Positions 40,216 through 51,240 of a stretch of DNA of 64,000 nt are shown one piece after another. The DNA is from Brachionus manjavacas (Eukaryota; Rotifera; Eurotatoria; Ploima; Brachionidae): NCBI GenBank assembly GCA_019054805.1, contig JAHQIY010000003.1, positions 4,712,001 through 4,776,000 of the forward strand, given 5' to 3'. Position numbers and translations under genes: made by a program. How positions within the stretch are numbered: the first letter of the stretch is position 1; every line of letters starts with the position of its first letter. Under the pieces are notes generated by a model. The model made no database searches and was not told the DNA's origin. It worked only from the letters and a program-made list of their open reading frames with translations.

Positions 40216-43200
40216 ATGTTTATTTGGTACAAAAATGATAAGATGAAACTTATTACTCGTAGTTCTGTTTTTATTTTTGTACTGATAAATCTAATTAGTT
40301 CGAATGATTTTGACTCGCCTAGAGTCCAAATCTTGAATTCCGACAATGAAATAGAGGAAAATTATGACGAAATGGCAGAAAATGGCGAAATTTCCCCCAA
40401 AAAAAATCACCTCGTACCTCCCTATGTTTTACAAGAGCCAGAATACAAGCGCGTTTGTATTTATCCCAACTGGTCCATCTTAAGAGACTCGAATATGGCT
40501 AAAATTTTTCCCGAAGACATACCTCCTGATTTGTGCACTCATATTCATTTCGCCTATGCCAATATTGATGTCAGAACTCTTCAGCTCGTGCCATCACAAT
40601 TCCAAGACATCAACAGCGGAGATCATGGCGGAGTAAGTCTTTTTATCAGATATACATTTTATTATTAATTATATATTATAATCTTTTTTTAAATAAAAAT
40701 ATTGATATTGAGGATATATTTAAGGTTAAGCTAAGAGATTAGCATTTTCTCCACTAATCTTAATTAGATAAAAATTCCTTTTTTTTAATTTCATTAAAGT
40801 AAAATAAAAATTATTAAATAAATAAAATTGCTGAAAAATTTTAAGGTTTGAAACTAGTTTTTCTTAAGACTCGTCTAGAAAAACCAAATTGGTAGAAAAA
40901 AACAGGATTTTAAGCTAATTTTTAGTCAACAAAAAAAATTAAAATAAGACCGTTTTTTAGGAAGGCTTTTTTCATTTTTTAAATGAGTAGTGATTAATTT
41001 TTTTTCAACAAAAATTTTTTTATTAATAAATATAAATTAAAAGTTGAAACAAACCAAATTTCATATTATCTTGATCTTGAATTGATGAAGAAATTGAAGA
41101 TGATAATTTTTATAGACATCTTTTTCTAAAATTGAATATTTTTTAATTCAAAGTTAATGAATATAAAAAAATAGTTTTATAAAAAGTGAGTTCCTTTAGC
41201 ACTATTTAAATTATAATATTAGTACAATTTTAAAAAAAATTTATCCTCTATTTTTGTTTCTTCTCTTTTTTTGCAAGTAAGTCCTCTCAATTTGTGACAA
41301 CGTTTGATCAAATCTTTTTTAAAAAGCCTACAATTCATCTTGTCCAAGCATTTGCTAATTTTGTAACACTCAATTAGATCTCCTCTTAGTCTGCTTGCTT
41401 CTAATTTCTTAATAAATAGACCTTGTTACCTTGGATTACACTTTTTGGATTTGATTTACTTTAATGTTGGATGCCAAATCTGCGCTTTAATCTCCAGTAA
41501 AGGTATAATAAAAGTTGGATCCATAATCTTGACTATTTCTTCAGTAATTTGTCATAAATTTTAATATAGATAAAAATTGATCATGTCAATAAATATTAAA
41601 TTAATTTTCCTTTTGAGTCTTTAACGAATAAAAATATTATGTTTAAATAACTCTGATTCAAGTTTTGAATTTTTTTTTTCATTTTTTTGTGATAAAAAAA
41701 TTTTAAAAAACTTTATGAGTAAAAAAAAATTGCCAGATCCATTTGAAAAAAGCAAATTATTTTAAGGCCGGTTTTAAAACTAGTTTCCAAATAAAACCGG
41801 TTTTAAGAATCAATTTACAATCGTTTTTTTCTGGTTAAAAAATTTTTGCGAATACTAGTTTTAATTTTTAGTCTTTAAATTAAAATCCTTCGATGATCCT
41901 ACTTACCTTTTTGGTTCAAACCTTGAATGATAGGAATCTTAGGAATAGTTTTGGGTCTCCCACGTTATGTGACCTATAGGTCACGAAAAATGTGACCAAT
42001 TCAATATCGCTCATTTGGTGACCAACAGTGGTCATTTATTTGTGACCTGTGCAATAGGTGACCAATATTTTAACAAATAATTTAAGTTGATTCAATAAGT
42101 GACCAAGAGGTTAATTATGTGACCAATTAACTCATTATGTGACCACGTACATCATTATGTGACCAATAAAATTATTTATGTGACCAATAATATTATTTAT
42201 GTGACCAATAAAATTATTTATGTGACCACTTAATTTTTAAAGGGACCAGAAAATTTAGAAAATGTTTATTAATTTTTATTGTTTCAATTTTTACTATTAT
42301 TTAACCGTCTAAATTTTTTCAATATTTTTAAGTTTTAAGTTCAAAAATCTAAAGTAATAAATATCTTAATTTTTATGTTTTCTACTTTTGTGTATCTTTA
42401 TTCCTGCCTCACCGTCCATATATTCTCCACATAATTCACATAAAATAGGATTCTTTTTGCCGCTTAATTTCTTCTTGATTACATCCTGAGTTTCTTTTGA
42501 ACATTCAGGTATTTCGTTAGCCAATTTTTCATAAATTTGTGACTTGTTTTTAGCGCTAGCAGTAGCAATATTTAAATTGTCCATTTTGTCAATAACATCT
42601 AATTCAGACTCATCATCTGTGCCATCAATACCAACATCTAGTGGAATGGTCTTAGTAGTAGTACTAGAACTACAAGAAGCTTCAATTGTAACATCATTTA
42701 GATGATCAGCCACATTTTCATCATTAAAATCATCTTCATAATGTACATTGCCTGAAACAGAACCTGAATCAGAATTAGAACTTGAACTTTCGGATTCCGT
42801 ATCGGAATAATCAGATGAAAATTCAACTTCTTCTTCCGGGTCACCATTTACTTCACGAATCAACTCCTCATACTCAGCACTTAAATTCGTTAATTAGTAA
42901 TAATAATTAAAAGAAAAATAATTTTAATTTTTACCTTTGACCAGGTGAGTAAAATCGAGCAATTTCCTTTAATATCAAATTAAAACATTCTTTGCGATCA
43001 CAGTTATTGTTGTACCGCCAAACAAACTCATCAATGTAAGATTGAATTTTCGAACGTTTGCAACCATGCATTTCCTTAAATTTATGCTTGCAAGCGTTCC
43101 ACAAACTCACGTTGTACACGTCCCAGTATTAGGGTCAACAAAGTTTAGACTGTGATTGACAGTCTGGTGTTTAAAATCTTTAAAATTTGATATTTTGTTG

Positions 43201-46200
43201 TAACTACTCCAACAATCAGAGTAGACAGTAGTTCCACGGTTACACTTTTCGTAAATAATGCTTAATAGTGTTAAGGCTTCTCTATCTTTTACGACTTGCA
43301 AATAACATTTTGGCAATTGATTATCAGTTTTTCGTTCAACAAGTCCAAAAACCCATACTTGTCCACGTCTAAGATCTTTTCCCTTCCAATGCTTTACTTT
43401 CGCGTAAAGCGACTCATCTATTTCCACAATCTTACCAAATCCTCCTAATACAATATTTTTTTTATCTAAACTTAACGTACAAATTTGCCGTAATTTTTCA
43501 AACAAACCAGCTACCATATTTTCACTAACATTGTCATCAAAATTCATTTTAATAATAGAACATGTTTTGACAATAGTCAGCTGAGCAGCCCAACATTTAA
43601 TTAAACCTATAATAATATTTATTTTTTTTCTAAACAAAGAAAAAAATGAACCATCCCATATAGATTTATAGGTACCACACTTGTAGCCATTACAACGCCA
43701 ACTCAAATGCTTATCAGATGATTTTTTTCCTCTTGTTCTGAATCTAAGTTCCATTTCTTTTTGAAACTTTGGACATTTAGTATTAGTACATACTTGTTTA
43801 CCATACACTGCATCCAATTCACGCAACATATTAAATATTTTAAATTCTTTGGATTCTTTAATTTCTTTGTCCATTTTAAAATTTAACTTTTTTCCAAATA
43901 AACTTTTTTTGCAAATAAACAGCTTTTTTTCAAAATTGCAATTTCATTAAACATCTTTTTTCAAAATTGCAATTTCATTAAACAGTTTTTTTCAAAATTT
44001 CAAAAAATTATAATCTTTATTTGATAAACATGTAAAATTAATTGTCTGATTTATAAAATGTAATTCATTAGTTATTTTTTAGGTGACCGTTGTCCTTCAT
44101 TAGGTGACCATTGTTCTTCATTAGGTGACCGTTGTTCTTCATTAGGTGACCATTGTTCTTCATTAGGTGACCGTTGTTCTTCATTAGGTGACCGTTGTAA
44201 TCATTTAGTGACCAAGTCCTATTCTATGTGACCATAAATTGGTCACCTATTGCACAGGTAACAAATAAATGACCACTGTTGGTCACCAAATGAGCGATAT
44301 TGAATTGGTCACATTTTTCGTGACCTATAGGTCACATAACGTGGGAGACCCATAGTTTTTTATATTCTTATTAATAAAAAGCCAAAAACGAGTTAAATAT
44401 CAAAAAATCTATTTTAAGTTTCTTTTTTCCTTTTTTTTTAATTTTTTCTATTTAGAAATAAATATTCTTTGAATAACTCTATTTAATTGAAAAAATAAAT
44501 TTCAAGAAATTCAACTCTTTTTTTTTGGCCCAAAACTCCAAGGTTACTCACACGAGATTGATTATATTTTGATTTTTTAGGCATTTTTCACGAAATTTTA
44601 TGTATACTTAGATAAGTTTTTAGAAAAATTTAGAAAAAAAATATCAATAGAATATTATTTTACAAATTTGTTGAAAATCACATGATTTGAAGAGATTTTT
44701 TAAGAAAAATAAAGCAATAAAATAAAAAAGTAAAACCATAGAATTGTTCAGAATTTTGTCTAGATTAAAAAAAAAAAAATCGGGTCATAATTGATCCCTC
44801 GGAGGAGATACGATTTAAACCAGAAAAAACACATTTTTTTCCTTTTTTTAGCCAACAAAAACCGCCACACCTTTTTTTTTTCTTCTAAATTACATTAGCA
44901 TGTAGAGAATTTTATGCTCTTTTAGAATATATATACTTTTTTAGCATATTTAAGTTTTATCTTTGAGATTTTGAGTCTTAAAGAACAACAACTTTTTAAA
45001 GGGTTTGCTATTTTTGGAACCCTGTGTGTAAAAAATTATTTTTTTGCCCCCTTCAAAAAAATTTTTTTTTGGGGTTTTTGAGGGCGTAAATTACGAATTT
45101 TGAGTCAAAAATGTGAAATTCAGATAGCACTAAAGTTTTGAATTTCTTGAACTTTATATATCAATAAAAAACAGCTTTGAAATCGTTTCTTAAAACCGGC
45201 TTTATTTTGAAACTGGCTTAGTAAAAATACGGTTTAAACCGATTTAAGGAACTGATCCTAGTTATAGCGGCTGTTGTTACTTTTGACGGATATCTAAATG
45301 CGGGAAATTAACAAGAAAAAATTATTTTTTTTTAACAAATTTTTCAATTTAAGTTTTGTATACGATATATTTATTTTCAAAATTTATTTTACCAAAATAT
45401 TGGGAAAATTAGAGTATATTTACTGGAATTTTGAAATTTTAATAATCATACGGTTTTTCTTTTTTTAAACTATATTAGTCTATGAATGGTTTTAACTTTA
45501 GTTTTCAACAACATTCAAGCAATTAATTGTCTATTAAATTTTTCTATCCTTTTTTAAAAATAGCACTATATTTCAATTTCTCCATGAGACTTAAACTTTA
45601 ATCAAATAAATAAATAAAATAAAAATAAATAATAAATAAAAAAAGACATTCAAAAAAAATCAGTTAAATCTTAAATTTAAGTATCAATTTTTTAATACGC
45701 AGATTGCTTTTTTTTGTTTGTATCTGTTTTATTTGAAATATTTTTGACCATAATTAAAGCTGTCTGATCAGGACTATAATTATCGTGTTCAATAAAATTA
45801 TAAAATTTTGAAATAACCAAAGAATCATCTTCTCATTTCTTATTTATTCTTTCCATCAATTAATTTTTTTATTTGCCAAATTTTTGTAAACTCATTATTT
45901 CCTGTCTTCATTCTCTATTTCCTATGGCCGCTGTAATGCAGCTACCATTGAGGGCTTCCTTAGAAAGTTGTCTCCGAAAGCCTGCTTGCTGTAGCTTATT
46001 TTTATCTATCGAAAACAAAAAAAAGTGGAAAGTAAGAGAGGGTTTATTTAAATTGTGAAAAATATTTTTGAAAATTTTAATTCATAATGTTTATTAATTT
46101 TAAACTAAATTATTTATTTAAATTCAAGAGTTACTGGAGATTTTGTTAAAAATTTCAAACAGTGTTCAAATCAAAAATTGAGCAATTATGCTTAAGATTT

Positions 46201-49200
46201 ATTAATAATTCTTTTACAAAATATTCAGACTTAATAAAGAAAAAATTTTCAAATAATTGAATAAAACAAAAAAGCTTAATATTGTTTGTAAGTCTAAATT
46301 TTTTTTAGCCTATTTACGAGAGGATTATCCGACTTCGAGAGATTAACCCCAATTTAAAGATATTAATTTCAATCGGAGGTTGGTTTGCCAAATCAACTCC
46401 TTTTAATCAAATATTGATAAGTGACGCAACTCGAGCAAGATTTATACAAAATGTACTTTATTTTCTCAAAAAATGGGATTTTGACGGACTTGGTAAAAAT
46501 TTCAAGCATTAAAAATAATCCCCGAAATTTAAATTTCCTATTTAAGACATACAATGGGAATATCCAGGTGACGTTGAATACGGTGCATCATCAGATAGCA
46601 AAATAAGATTTACTTATCTGATTAAAGTAATTGAATTTATTTTAATTAATTTTTCTATTTATTTTTTTTAGTATTTGTACAAAGCTTTTAGAGATGAATA
46701 TAAGCAAAGTTTTAAAAAGTACGTTCTCACTGCTTTTGCTCCGGCAGACGAAGATCGTATTGACGCAGGATATCAAGTCCGAATCATATGCAAGTATTTA
46801 AAAACCTAATCAAAAGAATCAAATTTATTTTCAATAAAATTTTTCATAGATATTTAGACTACATATCAATAGCAACTTATGACTACACAGGGCCATATGA
46901 TTCGAAAACAGGCTACAATTCTCCACTTTATTCCAGAAGTCATATGTCAAACAGTGTAGTAAGTTTATTTTTAAATGTTTTGAACTGAATTTATAATTAT
47001 TTTTTGCATTGAGAATTTTAGAACAAAAACCAAAAAATTCTTTAAATATTTTTCTGAGGTCCAAAATTGGATCTGTAAATTGTATCAACTAATTTATTAA
47101 ATTAATCCGTATAAAAAGATTATAATTCAATTTTCAATTTTAGCATATAAGCAGACAAATATACTCATTTCAAAAAAAAATTTAACTTTTTTTTTAAATT
47201 TTTTCTCTGAAATAATAATTTAGTCGAAAATTATAAATGTTAGCAGACCAAGTTGGAACAATCTTTGATTAATTACAAATAAAAATAATTTTCATCAAAT
47301 TAATTCAGATTCTTAATCAAAAATATCTTTAAATAATTTAAAAAAGCTATTTGTATTGCAATCCAAGAAATGATCTTTTATTCCTATTTGGTTTCGGCTT
47401 TTGATCGAAAAAAAATTATTTTTAATTAGAATTAAAAATAGTTTGAAAAATTTAATTTACTTACTTAGCTTCTTCGTTTTTTTTGGTCACTACATTTGCT
47501 AAATAATTCTTGTTCAAAACTTTAAATTCAATATTTTGATTTCAAGAAAAGAAATTTTTGATTTCTATTTTATTCAGACTCAAGAAAAATAAATAGAGAA
47601 TTGATAATTTATCATGCATTAGAAAATTAAACACAAATAAATTAAAAAAAAAAAAAACATAAAATAATTTTTTTATTCCGTATTTTTAGTGATGCAAACA
47701 GAAATTTAGATTCATAGAGAATAAATTTCCAAGAAATTTCGCTTTTAAAAGCAAAATATTAAAAAATGTCGTTCTGTTTCGCACGCAGTAATATTTAATA
47801 TCCAATTTATTATTTAGTTTAAAAATAATTTCTTCTATTCTCTTTTTAGAAATTAATATATTCAATAGATTCATTGATAATTAATGAATTGACTTTTAAA
47901 AGTTGTTTATATTTCTTTTGATTTCATATAGACAAGAATTTGAAAAATTTATTTATTTTAATTTTCCTAATAGACTATCTATAAATTTTAAAATTATTTT
48001 TATCTTGAATGTGAGTGTGAGTGATTCATTTGAGAAATTAAAGTGAGTTAGATAATCATTTTTTGCTATTCTATATCTAAAACCGAATAAAATCTGAAAA
48101 AAAAATTAATATAAAATAAGAATTCAACAATTTTTTTTAAATATTCATTTGTTTCATTTTTTTTAGGTTTTTTAATTTTAATTTTACAATTTTGTCTTTC
48201 GATTCGGCGCCCCTAAATGAACAAAAAGTTCTATTACAATTCTATTTATTTTTCGTTCATTTAAAAATATTATCTTTTTCTGTTATATCGATCAAAACAA
48301 ATTTAAGATTACGATGATTTAGTTTAAGATTTTGTGACTCTATCTACGCTGTCAAATCGATCTATTGATTGTATTATGAACTAGTTAGTTTTTTTGTCTG
48401 AAGGACCTTTAGCTCGAATAAACTAATGAATAATTAAAAAATTGGTAAGGAATTACGATCCTATGATTTATTTCGAAAAAATCTTATTTTTTCAATTGTT
48501 TTTTTTTTGATAGTCTTCAAATAAAATTTTCCCATCAGACATTTTATTAACTAAATATTCTCTCACCTATAAGATTTACAAAATGTAAAATTTATTAATG
48601 TTTAACAGAGAAACTTTAATTAACCATAACAAAAAAACATATTAATTTAGTTTGCAAATTTAATCATTATCTTTTCAAAAAATTTTTAAATTAATTTTTT
48701 AAAAAAAGTAGTGAAAAGAATTCATTTGGAGTTTACATTAACTTTAAAAAGAGAAAAAAAATCATATTTTGTAATTTATTCTTTATTTAAAGAATTTCAA
48801 ATTTTGATTTTTTTTAATTAAAATATTTTTTCTTGAAGAATTCGTCTGTTAACTTTTGGTTAGAGCGAGGCTGTCCATCGAAAAAAATTCTTCTCGGGAT
48901 TCCAACCTATGCACGAGCTTTTAAAATTATCAAAAGAAGCAATTCAAATTTACTGTTTGTAGGAATTGAATCAGAGCCTTATGTGAGTCCAAGTGTTTAC
49001 ACAAGTGAAGAGGGGATACTGAGTTATTATGAAGTATGCGAATTGATGACTAAAAAAGAGTCTAGGGTTTATTGGGACGATATTGCTGAAGTGCCATTTG
49101 CAATTGTTTCCGATTCTGCAAATTCTGATTTTGATAGTTCATCTAATTTGTGGATTTCTTATGAAGACGCTAGGAGTGCCAGAAAAAAAGTAGAATATGC

Positions 49201-49723
49201 CAAAAAAATGTCTTTAGGAGGAGTGTCTGTTTGGTCATTGGATATGGATGATTTTAAAGACATGTTTTGTAATTTGGGATCTTTTCCAATAATTGAATCT
49301 GTTAAAGAAGAATTCGAGCACAAAATTACACTTATTACGGATGATTTGAAAAAAGAGCAACCTACAATGGCCATGTCAACTGATATTATTAGTACCAAGG
49401 CTGTTGACGGAAGATTATTTGAGAACTATGATTCTGACAAAGAGTACTATGAATCTTTAAATACGGAAAGTTTGAATGGTGATTTTAAATCAAGCAGTCA
49501 ATTACCTGAAAATATGTTTGATAAATCGAATGATTCAGTTGCTAATCAGGTACAAGATAATTACGAAATTCTCAAGAAAAAACTGAAAAAATTTAAAGCT
49601 ATTAGAGAAATTAAATTGGTGGCGTGTTTGGACAAACAAAAGTGTAGCCTCAACAGTAGCGGTCAGATTGTACTAAATTCTAACTTTTTGATTATATTTT
49701 TTTTGACAATTTTAGCAATTTAA
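40216..49723 (+). CDS. Secreted GH18 chitinase-like protein
   Basis: Six exons: 40216-40632, 46309-46492, 46547-46626, 46672-46793, 46850-46958, 48839-49723; phases 0, 1, 0, 2, 0 agree, giving 598 residues. Met10 (40,243) begins a typical signal peptide (MKLITRSSVFIFVLINLISS), so it is the probable start. The GH18 barrel shows KRVCIYPNWS, HIHFAYANID, KILISIGGW, the catalytic strand DGLDIQWEYPG (Asp198 to Gly208), TAFAPA, YISIATYDYTGP, LLGIPTYARAF, the YWDD loop and GGVSVWSLDMDDF. The catalytic acid Glu205 is kept, but the Asp two residues before it, normally part of DxxDxDxE, is Gln203, so activity may be lost or altered. After the barrel come about 100 acidic/serine-rich residues and a hydrophobic C-terminus (LIIFFLTILAI) suggesting a GPI signal or membrane anchor. 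There is no chitin-binding peritrophin domain. Intron 1 (5.7 kb) carries transposons. Confidence 0.9.
41270..41530 (-). mobile_element. LINE remnant in chitinase intron 1
   Basis: Minus-strand traces of a LINE C-terminal region: QIWHPTLK (compare VQVWNP), FIKKLEASRLRGDLIECYKI, and CLDKMNC. These resemble the RRVRGDLIERYKL segment of the fragment at 11,755 but are more decayed, with several stops. Confidence 0.55.
42067..42235. repeat. Left subterminal GTGACC repeat array of Merlin
   Basis: Irregular repeats with core TATGTGACCA, four to five of them as ATTATTTATGTGACCAATAA-type units of about 20 bases. Their position next to the terminal repeat suggests transposase binding sites (inference). 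Confidence 0.75.
42366..43874 (-). pseudogene. Merlin (IS1595/ISXO2-type) transposase with C2H2 tail, one frameshift
   Basis: DDE transposase of the Merlin element. First block 43,107-43,874 (255 residues): zinc ribbon with Cys29, 34, 61, 66, then IVEIDES (first Asp, 153), WVFGLVER, TTVYSDCWSSY (second Asp, 220) and VNHSLNFVDPNTG. The frame changes at 43,107-43,119; the next block continues the same domain (SLWNACKHKFKEMHG, YIDEFVWRYNN), so this is a frameshift inside a formerly continuous gene. The Glu expected just before the SLWN motif is not seen. A 55-base GT...AG intron (42,880-42,934, phase 2) joins this to exon 2 (42,366-42,879), which adds a Ser/Asp/Glu-rich tail and a C2H2 finger (CELC...HKSRKH). 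The tail and finger are not part of the basic ISXO2 domain. Confidence 0.88.
44076..44222. repeat. Right subterminal tandem repeats of Merlin
   Basis: About six head-to-tail 21-base units with core ATTAGGTGACC, alternating G and A after the core, between the transposase start and the right terminal repeat. Likely transposase binding sites. Confidence 0.8.
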
Positions 49724-49884: not shown

Positions 49885-51240
49885 ACATTTGAGAAGAAAG
49901 ATTGGAGAGTAGAGATGTGCAAACAAGGTTGGAGAAACTAAATTGCGACAAGTCACCAGGCGGAGACGGGGTATCGAGACGAGGTATCGATGAGCGTGGG
50001 TAATAATAAGTGGGTGGATGTACTATACAAGGACTTTGAGAAGACTTTTGATATGGTTTCACATAGTAAACTTCTCATCAAGTTAAGAGCGTATGGAATA
50101 TGTGGTAAACTGCTCGACTGGATTAAGGCATTCTTGAGCGATAGAAGGCAAAAGGTGGTTATGAGCACGCCGGAATCAAGGTGGAGAAATATTACAAGTG
50201 TGTGCCTCAAGGATCAGTATTAGGTCCCTTACTTTTCGTGATATATATCAATTACTTTCCAGACAAAATAAATAACATAATGGAGATGTACACTGATGAT
50301 AGTAAAGTGATTTCAGAGGGGAACGAAATGTCACAATCAGATTTACAAGCAGATATAAATGAAAAAGATAACTGGTGCAAGAAGCGGTCAATGTTCTTAA
50401 ACAGTAATAAATGCAAAATCATGCATTACGGGAAGAAGAACCCAAGAAACAAATATTACATTCAACATGGGGAAGAAAAAGTACGGTTGCAGGAATCGGA
50501 GTTTGAGAAAGATCTGGATATTATGATTTCAAATGATGGCAAAAATAGTAAACAAGTAGAAGCGGCATTATCTAAAGCTAACAGTGCTTTAGGTAGACTG
50601 AATTCAAATTTTTTAATAAAGAGTTGTTTAAAAAGCTGTTCCCAGCTTTCGTCAGAACGCATTTAGAATTCGCTTGGGCGGTATGGAATTCTATGACTAG
50701 AAGTGAAATTAATAAGGTCGAAGGAATCCAGAAAAGGGCGACTAAAATGGTAATAGAATTAAGAGGATTAGAATACGAAGAAAGACTTAGGGAGCTTGGT
50801 CTAACAGACCTGGAAACAAGGAGAAAAAAAGGGGACTTATTTCAAATATTTAAGATAAGGAAAGGGTTCGAGAAGGTAGATTTGGATATTAGAGAGAATG
50901 AGGGAGTAAGTGAGGGGACTAGCAGGAGACACACTAGCCAAATAACAAGGGATAATGAGGGATAATGAGGGATAAGTTCTTACTTAACCGAACAGCTACA
51001 ACCTGGAACCTTTTACCCTCGGAAATAGTAGGGACTGATACGGTCAATCAGTTTAAGGCCAAAATTGATAGACATATGAAGTCGGAGACCTGGAGAAGAT
51101 CTGTTTACAGAATCTGATACTGAGGAACTTTGACTTAATGCAACTTAGGTTGCAACCTGATAAAGTGCAGCGTTATGAACTGCACTCACACTTATATGTT
51201 ACAGCTCACACTACTCCTACTACTACTATTTTATATTTTA
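49885..51240 (+). mobile_element. 5'-truncated LINE (CR1/L2/Jockey-like)
   Basis: Non-LTR retrotransposon fragment starting inside the reverse transcriptase: KLNCDKSPGGDGV, then DFEKTFDMVSHSKLL, FLSDRRQKVV, VPQGSVLGPLLFVIYIN, catalytic YTDD (YADD variant) and NSNKCKIMHYG. The thumb and C-terminal region follow (RTHLEFAWAVWNS, VEGIQKRATKM, RRKKGDLFQIFKI, TWNLLPSEIVG-like end). At least two frameshifts (near 50,205 and 50,640) break it. The 3' tail ends in CACTACTCCTACTACTACT. No endonuclease domain remains. Confidence 0.9.

What the first reader, a model, noticed from the sequence alone, without database searches (positions are those of the whole stretch)
42366..43874. Merlin transposase carrying an acidic tail and a C2H2 finger on a separate exon
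A 55-base intron in phase 2 joins the end of the IS1595/ISXO2-type catalytic domain to an exon with a Ser/Asp/Glu-rich stretch and a single CxxC...HxxxxH finger. Known Merlin/IS1016-type proteins, as I recall them, consist of a zinc ribbon plus DDE domain only. An added finger could supply DNA-site or partner binding and hints at a distinct Merlin lineage.
Basis: partly seen in the sequence, partly recalled or inferred. Interest (0 to 1): 0.72.

Follow-up and report, generated by a model that had tools for sequence, protein, structure and literature searches.

The report
Merlin transposase with extra zinc finger
A jumping gene of the Merlin type in an animal genome makes a cutting enzyme with an added acidic tail and zinc finger; related copies share that tail or carry other nucleic-acid-binding tails instead, so the addition looks like a real family trait rather than an accident of one copy.

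Summary
The window carries a Merlin element (41953-44351) with 8-bp target duplications, near-perfect inverted repeats, an IS1595-type DDE transposase and a phase-2, 55-nt intron leading to an acidic exon that ends in one C2H2 finger. The tail is not a one-off. In the same 114-Mb genome, 9 of 30 loci whose DDE match reaches the domain's end have a matching finger 362-617 bp downstream; upstream 0 of 30, opposite strand 0 of 30. The phase-2 intron is in all 7 copies tested (window plus 6 relatives). A sister clade encodes DDE plus finger in one frame (L046, complete ends and duplication). The tail shows purifying selection (window versus L057, dN/dS about 0.21). Other Merlin clades here carry R3H and AT-hook-like modules in the same place, so the tail looks modular. 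The finger's function is untested. The only precedent I found is a C-terminal ZZ finger in some Symbiodinium Merlin copies. I call it a new variant of a known kind.

The parts
41945..41952 (.). left target-site duplication ATAGTTTT
   Evidence: identical 8 bp at 44352-44359
41953..42079 (.). left terminal inverted repeat, starts GGGTCTCCCACG
   Evidence: inverted repeat with 44225-44351, 95% over 128 nt; 99% over 115 nt
41969..42227 (.). left subterminal GTGACC array, 20-21-nt spacing in its inner part
   Evidence: 26 GTGAHC sites in the two non-coding ends against 0.91 expected; 0 of 300 shuffles reach it
42366..42879 (-). tail exon: acidic linker, helix-like segment, C2H2 finger, stop
42369..42440 (-). 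single C2H2 finger CELCGEYMDGEAGIKIHKSRKHKN
   Evidence: all four ligands invariant in 11 of 11 aligned tails, which were chosen as tail hits; weak profile matches to C2H2 fingers in the PDB
42880..42934 (-). 55-nt phase-2 intron GTAAAA...TTTAAG
   Evidence: same place and phase in L041, L042, L057, L060, L063, L064
42935..43119 (-). 3' part of the DDE domain in a shifted frame, up to YSPGQ
   Evidence: 62-aa ORF 42931-43119; PF12762 positions 120-153, E 0.0014
43107..43119 (-). frame break; about 4 nt and the catalytic Glu codon missing compared with relatives
   Evidence: size inferred from relatives
43107..43874 (-). Merlin transposase: N-terminal CX4C...CX4C and the first two catalytic Asp
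44083..44335 (.). right subterminal GTGACC array
44225..44351 (.). right terminal inverted repeat
44352..44359 (.). right target-site duplication ATAGTTTT

Best explanation
It is a non-autonomous, decayed copy of a Merlin-superfamily cut-and-paste transposon. Its family's transposase is a fusion: an IS1595-type DDE nuclease domain followed by a conserved C-terminal tail made of an acidic, probably disordered linker, a short helical segment and one C2H2 zinc finger. Shown here by sequence: the element ends, the target duplications, the recurrence of the tail, the shared splice position, the single-frame version in a sister clade, and purifying selection on the tail. Inferred: the N-terminal cysteine-rich region and the DDE core act at the inverted repeats and phased subterminal array, as in other cut-and-paste transposases, while the tail adds an auxiliary nucleic-acid or partner contact during transpososome assembly or target capture. 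Other Merlin clades in the same genome have R3H and AT-hook-like modules in the same place, which fits an auxiliary nucleic-acid-binding role for the tail as a class.
For: Fusion and recurrence: L046 is one 507-codon frame (first Met at 29) with PF12762, D-D-E and the finger, inside an element with an 8-bp duplication; 9 of 30 DDE matches that reach the model's end have a finger 362-617 bp downstream, 0 of 30 upstream, 0 of 30 on the opposite strand. Intron in phase 2 in 7 of 7 copies tested, window included; lengths 39 or 45 (two possible acceptors in L063) to 70 nt. dN/dS 0.21 for the whole tail and 0.17 for the last 60 codons, window versus L057. Ligands invariant in 11 of 11 aligned tails; profile of the tails matches C2H2 proteins in the PDB, best whole-sequence E 7e-4, ZNF217. 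Membership: exact 8-bp duplication in 15 of 17 elements whose ends were set, 7/8 in the other 2; DDE model passes. Other modules: R3H above Pfam's gathering score in L065 (31.5 bits against 26.8), below it in L049, L050, L061; GRP-type AT-hook sequence in L050 and, after an in-frame stop, in L055. IS1595-type ORFs from other genomes end 16-39 residues after the corresponding site in the 10 of 27 loci where this could be measured (9 bacterial, 1 viral contig).
Against: No RNA or protein data. The finger is below Pfam's cut-offs in every tail scanned, and in the PDB search the single stretches of the best hit are not significant by themselves (i-E 0.34 and 1.6). AlphaFold on the lone window tail gave no usable model (mean pLDDT 44.7). 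Selection is weaker or unmeasurable in other pairs (finger, window versus L042: 0.64; L049 versus L046: 0.40; L048 versus L062: 0.59; L046 versus L047: 0.44; several dS saturated). 16 of 30 DDE loci had neither a finger nor an R3H hit by these queries; of 10 of these that I read, two (L069, L070) show no recognisable tail module. Among the loci read, L046 is the only finger-bearing copy whose frame looks complete; L047 lacks the N-terminus.
Confidence: 0.85

Rival explanations
1. The finger specifically reads the phased subterminal GTGAHC array, so that tail and array form a matched pair.
For: GTGAHC sites are strongly enriched in the non-coding ends of 10 of 11 finger-type elements (0 of 300 shuffles reach the count in each of the 10) and absent from 7 of 7 elements of the AT-hook clade. 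Counted by family this is 6 of 7 against 0 of 4.
Against: L042 has the finger but a TGATAAC array, and AT-hook families L050, L051 and L055 have their own repeated motifs, in L050 and L051 partly with the same 20-nt spacing (motifs picked after looking at each element). The arrangement is shared across tail types, which fits recognition by a domain common to all. The motif was itself chosen after seeing the window and its relatives.
Confidence: 0.25
2. The finger and acidic segment are a protein-interaction or regulatory tail (dimerisation, nuclear import, host cofactor) with no direct DNA contact.
For: Single C2H2 finger, long acidic stretch and a conserved segment before the finger; single fingers often bind proteins (general knowledge).
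Against: Related clades place R3H and AT-hook-like modules, types known to bind nucleic acids (general knowledge), in the same C-terminal position.
Confidence: 0.3
3. The tail exon is an unrelated downstream gene or second ORF, or random read-through, not part of the transposase.
For: In the window it is in another exon, and no Pfam zinc-finger model matches it.
Against: Single frame in L046 and L047, shared phase-2 junction in 7 of 7 copies tested, downstream-only placement.
Confidence: 0.03
4. The tail was captured from a host gene as a domesticated transposase-host fusion.
For: Host-transposase fusions are known (cited in PMC8101967, section 10).
Against: The tail lies inside mobile elements with TIRs and 8-bp duplications and is spread over several diverged families.
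Confidence: 0.05

Closest known systems
Merlin superfamily (PMC8101967)
   Same: DDE_Tnp_IS1595 domain, TIRs beginning GG, 8-bp target duplications, internal tandem repeats in some families
   Different: adds a C2H2 finger, R3H and/or AT-hook-like tail; an intron before the tail in the window clade; phased subterminal arrays on both sides
Symbiodinium kawagutii Merlin family Sy.k_F1 (PMC8101967)
   Same: a Merlin transposase with a C-terminal zinc finger in some copies
   Different: reported as a ZZ-type finger (cl00295), not C2H2; no intron or R3H is described in the passages I saw
Bacterial IS1595/IS1016 insertion sequences
   Same: homologous DDE domain (NF033547 passes its cut-off for L046 and L050)
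   Different: the 9 bacterial ORFs that could be measured end 16-39 residues after the site where the tail begins here
R2-type retrotransposon C2H2 finger
   Same: the finger profile weakly matches an R2 protein chain (PDB 9nl2, E 0.013)
   Different: different mobile-element class; matched near the start of that chain, not the end; the match is weak

Membership tests
Merlin superfamily | DDE_Tnp_IS1595 catalytic domain | tested here: met
   PF12762 E 1.3e-10 for the window ORF alone, 3.6e-20 for L046
Merlin superfamily | three catalytic acids D-D-E | tested here: inconclusive
   present in L046, L047, L050, L051 (4 of the 5 frames checked; L066 lacks the first); the third is lost in the window copy through the frame break
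Merlin superfamily | TIRs beginning GG | tested here: met
   window starts GGGTCT and ends AGACCC; for the 16 relatives the boundary scan itself required GG, so those do not test it
Merlin superfamily | 8-9-bp target-site duplications | tested here: met
   exact 8 bp in 15 of 17, 7/8 in 2 of 17 (ends allowed to slide a few bases). Ends of L041, L058, L059, L060 were not settled and are left out; L061-L071 not tested
IS1595 family with N-terminal Zn_Tnp_IS1595 | Zn_Tnp_IS1595 domain | tested here: not met
   no such hit at E up to 1 for the window or up to 10 for the relatives scanned; a CX4C...CX4C pattern is present in the window
C2H2 zinc finger | Cys2-His2 ligand pattern and profile match | tested here: met
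   ligands invariant in 11 of 11 aligned tails, chosen as tail hits (spacing longer in L046, L048, L049). Profile versus PDB best whole-sequence E 7e-4, single stretches not significant; no Pfam C2H2 model passes its cut-off
R3H domain in related clades | R-x3-H core and Pfam R3H match | tested here: met
   L065 31.5 bits against 26.8; L049, L050, L061 below cut-off; profile of five typed segments, best PDB hit SMUBP-2 R3H, E 0.004; L056, L068 by eye only
AT-hook in related clades | GRP core in a basic tail | tested here: inconclusive
   KRKRGRPPK in L050 (Pfam AT_hook 11.4 bits against 17.4); KKVGRPKK in L055 after an in-frame stop; L051 family has RGRKK without GRP

The most novel reading that the evidence does not exclude
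In this animal genome Merlin transposases have evolved by swapping C-terminal nucleic-acid-binding modules. R3H appears ancestral to most clades, with a C2H2 finger or an AT-hook added or lost in different clades, each paired with its own phased subterminal site array. That would make the tail a recognition or targeting module that diversified transposon families within one genome.
Probability: 0.35. Interest if true: 0.68.

Novelty: new variant of a known kind. Interest (0 to 1): 0.52.

Why it matters
Merlin is widespread, but its non-catalytic parts are little described in the papers I could reach. Families in one genome that share a DDE core but differ in finger, R3H and AT-hook-like tails, with motif arrays that also differ, give a natural test of how a cut-and-paste transposase gains or changes DNA recognition, and of how introns and zinc fingers enter a lineage whose bacterial relatives end soon after the DDE domain.

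Tried and rejected
Rejected: an unrelated downstream gene (single-frame copies); the frame break being a second intron (I saw, by eye, no acceptor after the GTGAGT there that keeps the conserved WNACK stretch); a host-gene domestication (mobile copies). Tried without result: AlphaFold on the window tail (pLDDT 44.7), so no fold search was run; Pfam and NCBIfam on tails (nothing above cut-off except R3H in L065); single-protein PDB searches of L046 and L050 (no hit below E 0.03); viral contigs (3 loci at 31-32% identity, none with a tail recognised).

Literature: searches for Merlin with zinc finger and C2H2, with R3H, with AT-hook, with Brachionus, IS1595 with Merlin and zinc finger, and ISXO2-like with C2H2 returned no paper or only PMC8101967. 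One search listed 15 papers and one search listed 10; of these I opened only PMC8101967. One search listed two, of which I saw one passage of PMC3985635, where R3H belongs to PARN. Most subscription papers are not held, nor did I have Repbase.

Limits: genome searches score only the best candidates, so counts are lower bounds. Finger hits were merged within 300 bp to 186 distinct places; 30 lie downstream of a DDE hit. Of 7 tail loci examined that lack a DDE hit, 4 (L014, L015, L018, L019) have GTGAHC arrays beside them and 3 do not, so that solitary tails are deletion derivatives is likely for some and open for the rest. R3H is not special to Merlin here: 5 matches in the genome pass the cut-off and only one of them (L065) is one of the Merlin loci I read; the other four were not read. 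In one search the flanks of L055 held 16 GTGAHC sites, not followed up. In one search the listing of L046/L047 residue differences used a wrong offset and is ignored; the codon comparison in the same call is used.
Full report
What is there. The window element is a Merlin transposon at 41953-44351: 8-bp duplication ATAGTTTT on both sides, GGGTCTCCC ends, inverted repeats of 128 nt at 95%. Its transposase reads on the minus strand from 43874, with PF12762. Near 43107-43119 the frame breaks: relatives read TCTN-x-IE-SLW, and the window lacks about 4 nt there, taking away the third catalytic acid. The size of the loss is an inference from relatives, since the two other copies of this subfamily that I read (L044, L045) are deleted in that part. 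Downstream the frame continues to YSPGQ, then a 55-nt intron, then the acidic tail exon ending in a C2H2 finger. The element lies between exons of a GH18 gene on the plus strand (the exon at 48818 passes, the one at 40216 is below the cut-off; a middle exon at 46309 was read by eye), so it probably sits in an intron.

Recurrence. The genome (114 Mb, 61 contigs) gave 152 matches to the transposase query, 150 of them listed, and 43 PF12762 matches at E up to 1e-6. Of these 43, 30 reach the end of the DDE model. Of the 30, 9 are followed within 2 kb on the same strand by a finger match (362-617 bp), 5 by an R3H/AT-hook match, 16 by neither; for the finger, upstream 0 of 30 and opposite strand 0 of 30; this control was not run for R3H. 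I read 10 of the 16 (L051, L053, L054, L056, L065-L070). L065 has R3H and a basic end, L068 and L056 show R3H-like stretches by eye, L051, L053, L054, L066 and L067 belong to one family with an AT-hook-like basic end (partly out of frame), and L069 and L070 show no module I recognise. The other 6 were not read. With the first query alone, 19 of 150 listed tail matches lay downstream of a transposase match.

Exon structure. In the window, L041, L042, L057, L060, L063 and L064 (all 7 copies tested; L060 and L064 are close kin, as are window and L057) the intron sits after Y-x-P-G-x, phase 2, with lengths of 39 or 45 to 70 nt and different sequences (the flanking peptides were picked by eye). L046 has no intron: one 507-codon frame (first Met at 29) with D-D-E and the finger at its end, in a 1,816-bp element with duplication GAAAATAA. 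L047 is 97% identical over 470 codons but lacks the N-terminus; L048, L049 and L061 have the same layout with frame breaks. L041 and L042 carry another intron at DP-x-SG, and L043 one after HWK; the window has neither.

Selection and finger identity. Window versus L057: whole tail dN/dS 0.21, last 60 codons 0.17, acidic part 0.22 (simple counting method). Less clear: finger of window versus L042, 0.64; L049 versus L046 tail, 0.40; L048 versus L062, 0.59 and L046 versus L047, 0.44 (few changes); several pairs saturated. In 11 aligned tails, chosen as tail hits and two of them alike over most of their length, the four ligands are among 7 invariant columns. A profile of these tails matches C2H2 proteins in the PDB (best ZNF217, whole-sequence E 7e-4; its single stretches have i-E 0.34 and 1.6), though no Pfam C2H2 model passes its cut-off.

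Clades and modules. A maximum-likelihood tree of 18 Merlin and 7 IS-type sequences (one of the 7 from a viral contig; 4 rows under half-filled; 10 of 22 inner branches well supported; midpoint root) gives one Merlin group (100/100). In it are a window clade (7 rows, 96/98; finger in all but L041, whose tail is apparently cut by another element), a second finger clade (L046, L048, L049, L061; 99/100) and a clade with R3H and/or AT-hook-like ends (6 rows, 97/94; L070 in it shows no module); L068 stands apart with R3H-like and basic end (tail labels). The order of these clades is unresolved, so whether finger or R3H came first is open; R3H-like stretches in the second and third clades and L068 make it the better candidate for an ancestral part. 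R3H passes Pfam's cut-off only in L065; elsewhere it is below cut-off, with a profile match to SMUBP-2 R3H (E 0.004).

Arrays. GTGAHC sites are enriched in the non-coding ends of 10 of 11 finger-type elements and absent from 7 of 7 of the AT-hook clade; by family 6 of 7 against 0 of 4. L042 is the exception. L050, L051 and L055 have other repeated motifs, in the first two partly at the same 20-nt spacing, which argues that a shared domain, not the finger alone, reads the arrays. Repeats inside Merlins are already described (PMC8101967).

Comparison with print. [quoted passage not shown] I found no report of a C2H2, R3H or AT-hook tail in a Merlin in the searches; most papers listed were not opened, and Repbase and most subscription papers were out of reach. 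Verdict: membership in Merlin is firm; the tail is a real, conserved variant; its function is inferred.

Noticed in passing
window 40216-49723 (+): The Merlin element lies between exons of a GH18 chitinase-like gene on the opposite strand, so it is probably an intronic insertion.
   Followed up: partly
L065:305-1120, L050, L055, L049, L061, L068: R3H domain (above cut-off only in L065) or R3H-like segment C-terminal to the Merlin DDE domain, with an AT-hook-like end or a finger after it.
   Followed up: partly
L041, L042 (after DP-x-SG) and L043 (after HWK): Further introns inside the DDE domain that the window copy lacks, suggesting intron gain or loss among close Merlin copies.
   Followed up: no
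G000 C1:2486437-2511450: A series of similar Merlin fragments about 3.3-4.7 kb apart, apparently a segmental array.
   Followed up: no
L059: The transposase fragment sits between the arms of an inverted duplication of about 1.7 kb at 99% identity.
   Followed up: no
L055 flanks: 16 GTGAHC sites in the 2 kb around this AT-hook-type element, against 0-3 in the flanks of the others; perhaps a neighbouring finger-type element.
   Followed up: no
window 50145-50666 (+): Reverse transcriptase fragment (PF00078).
   Followed up: no
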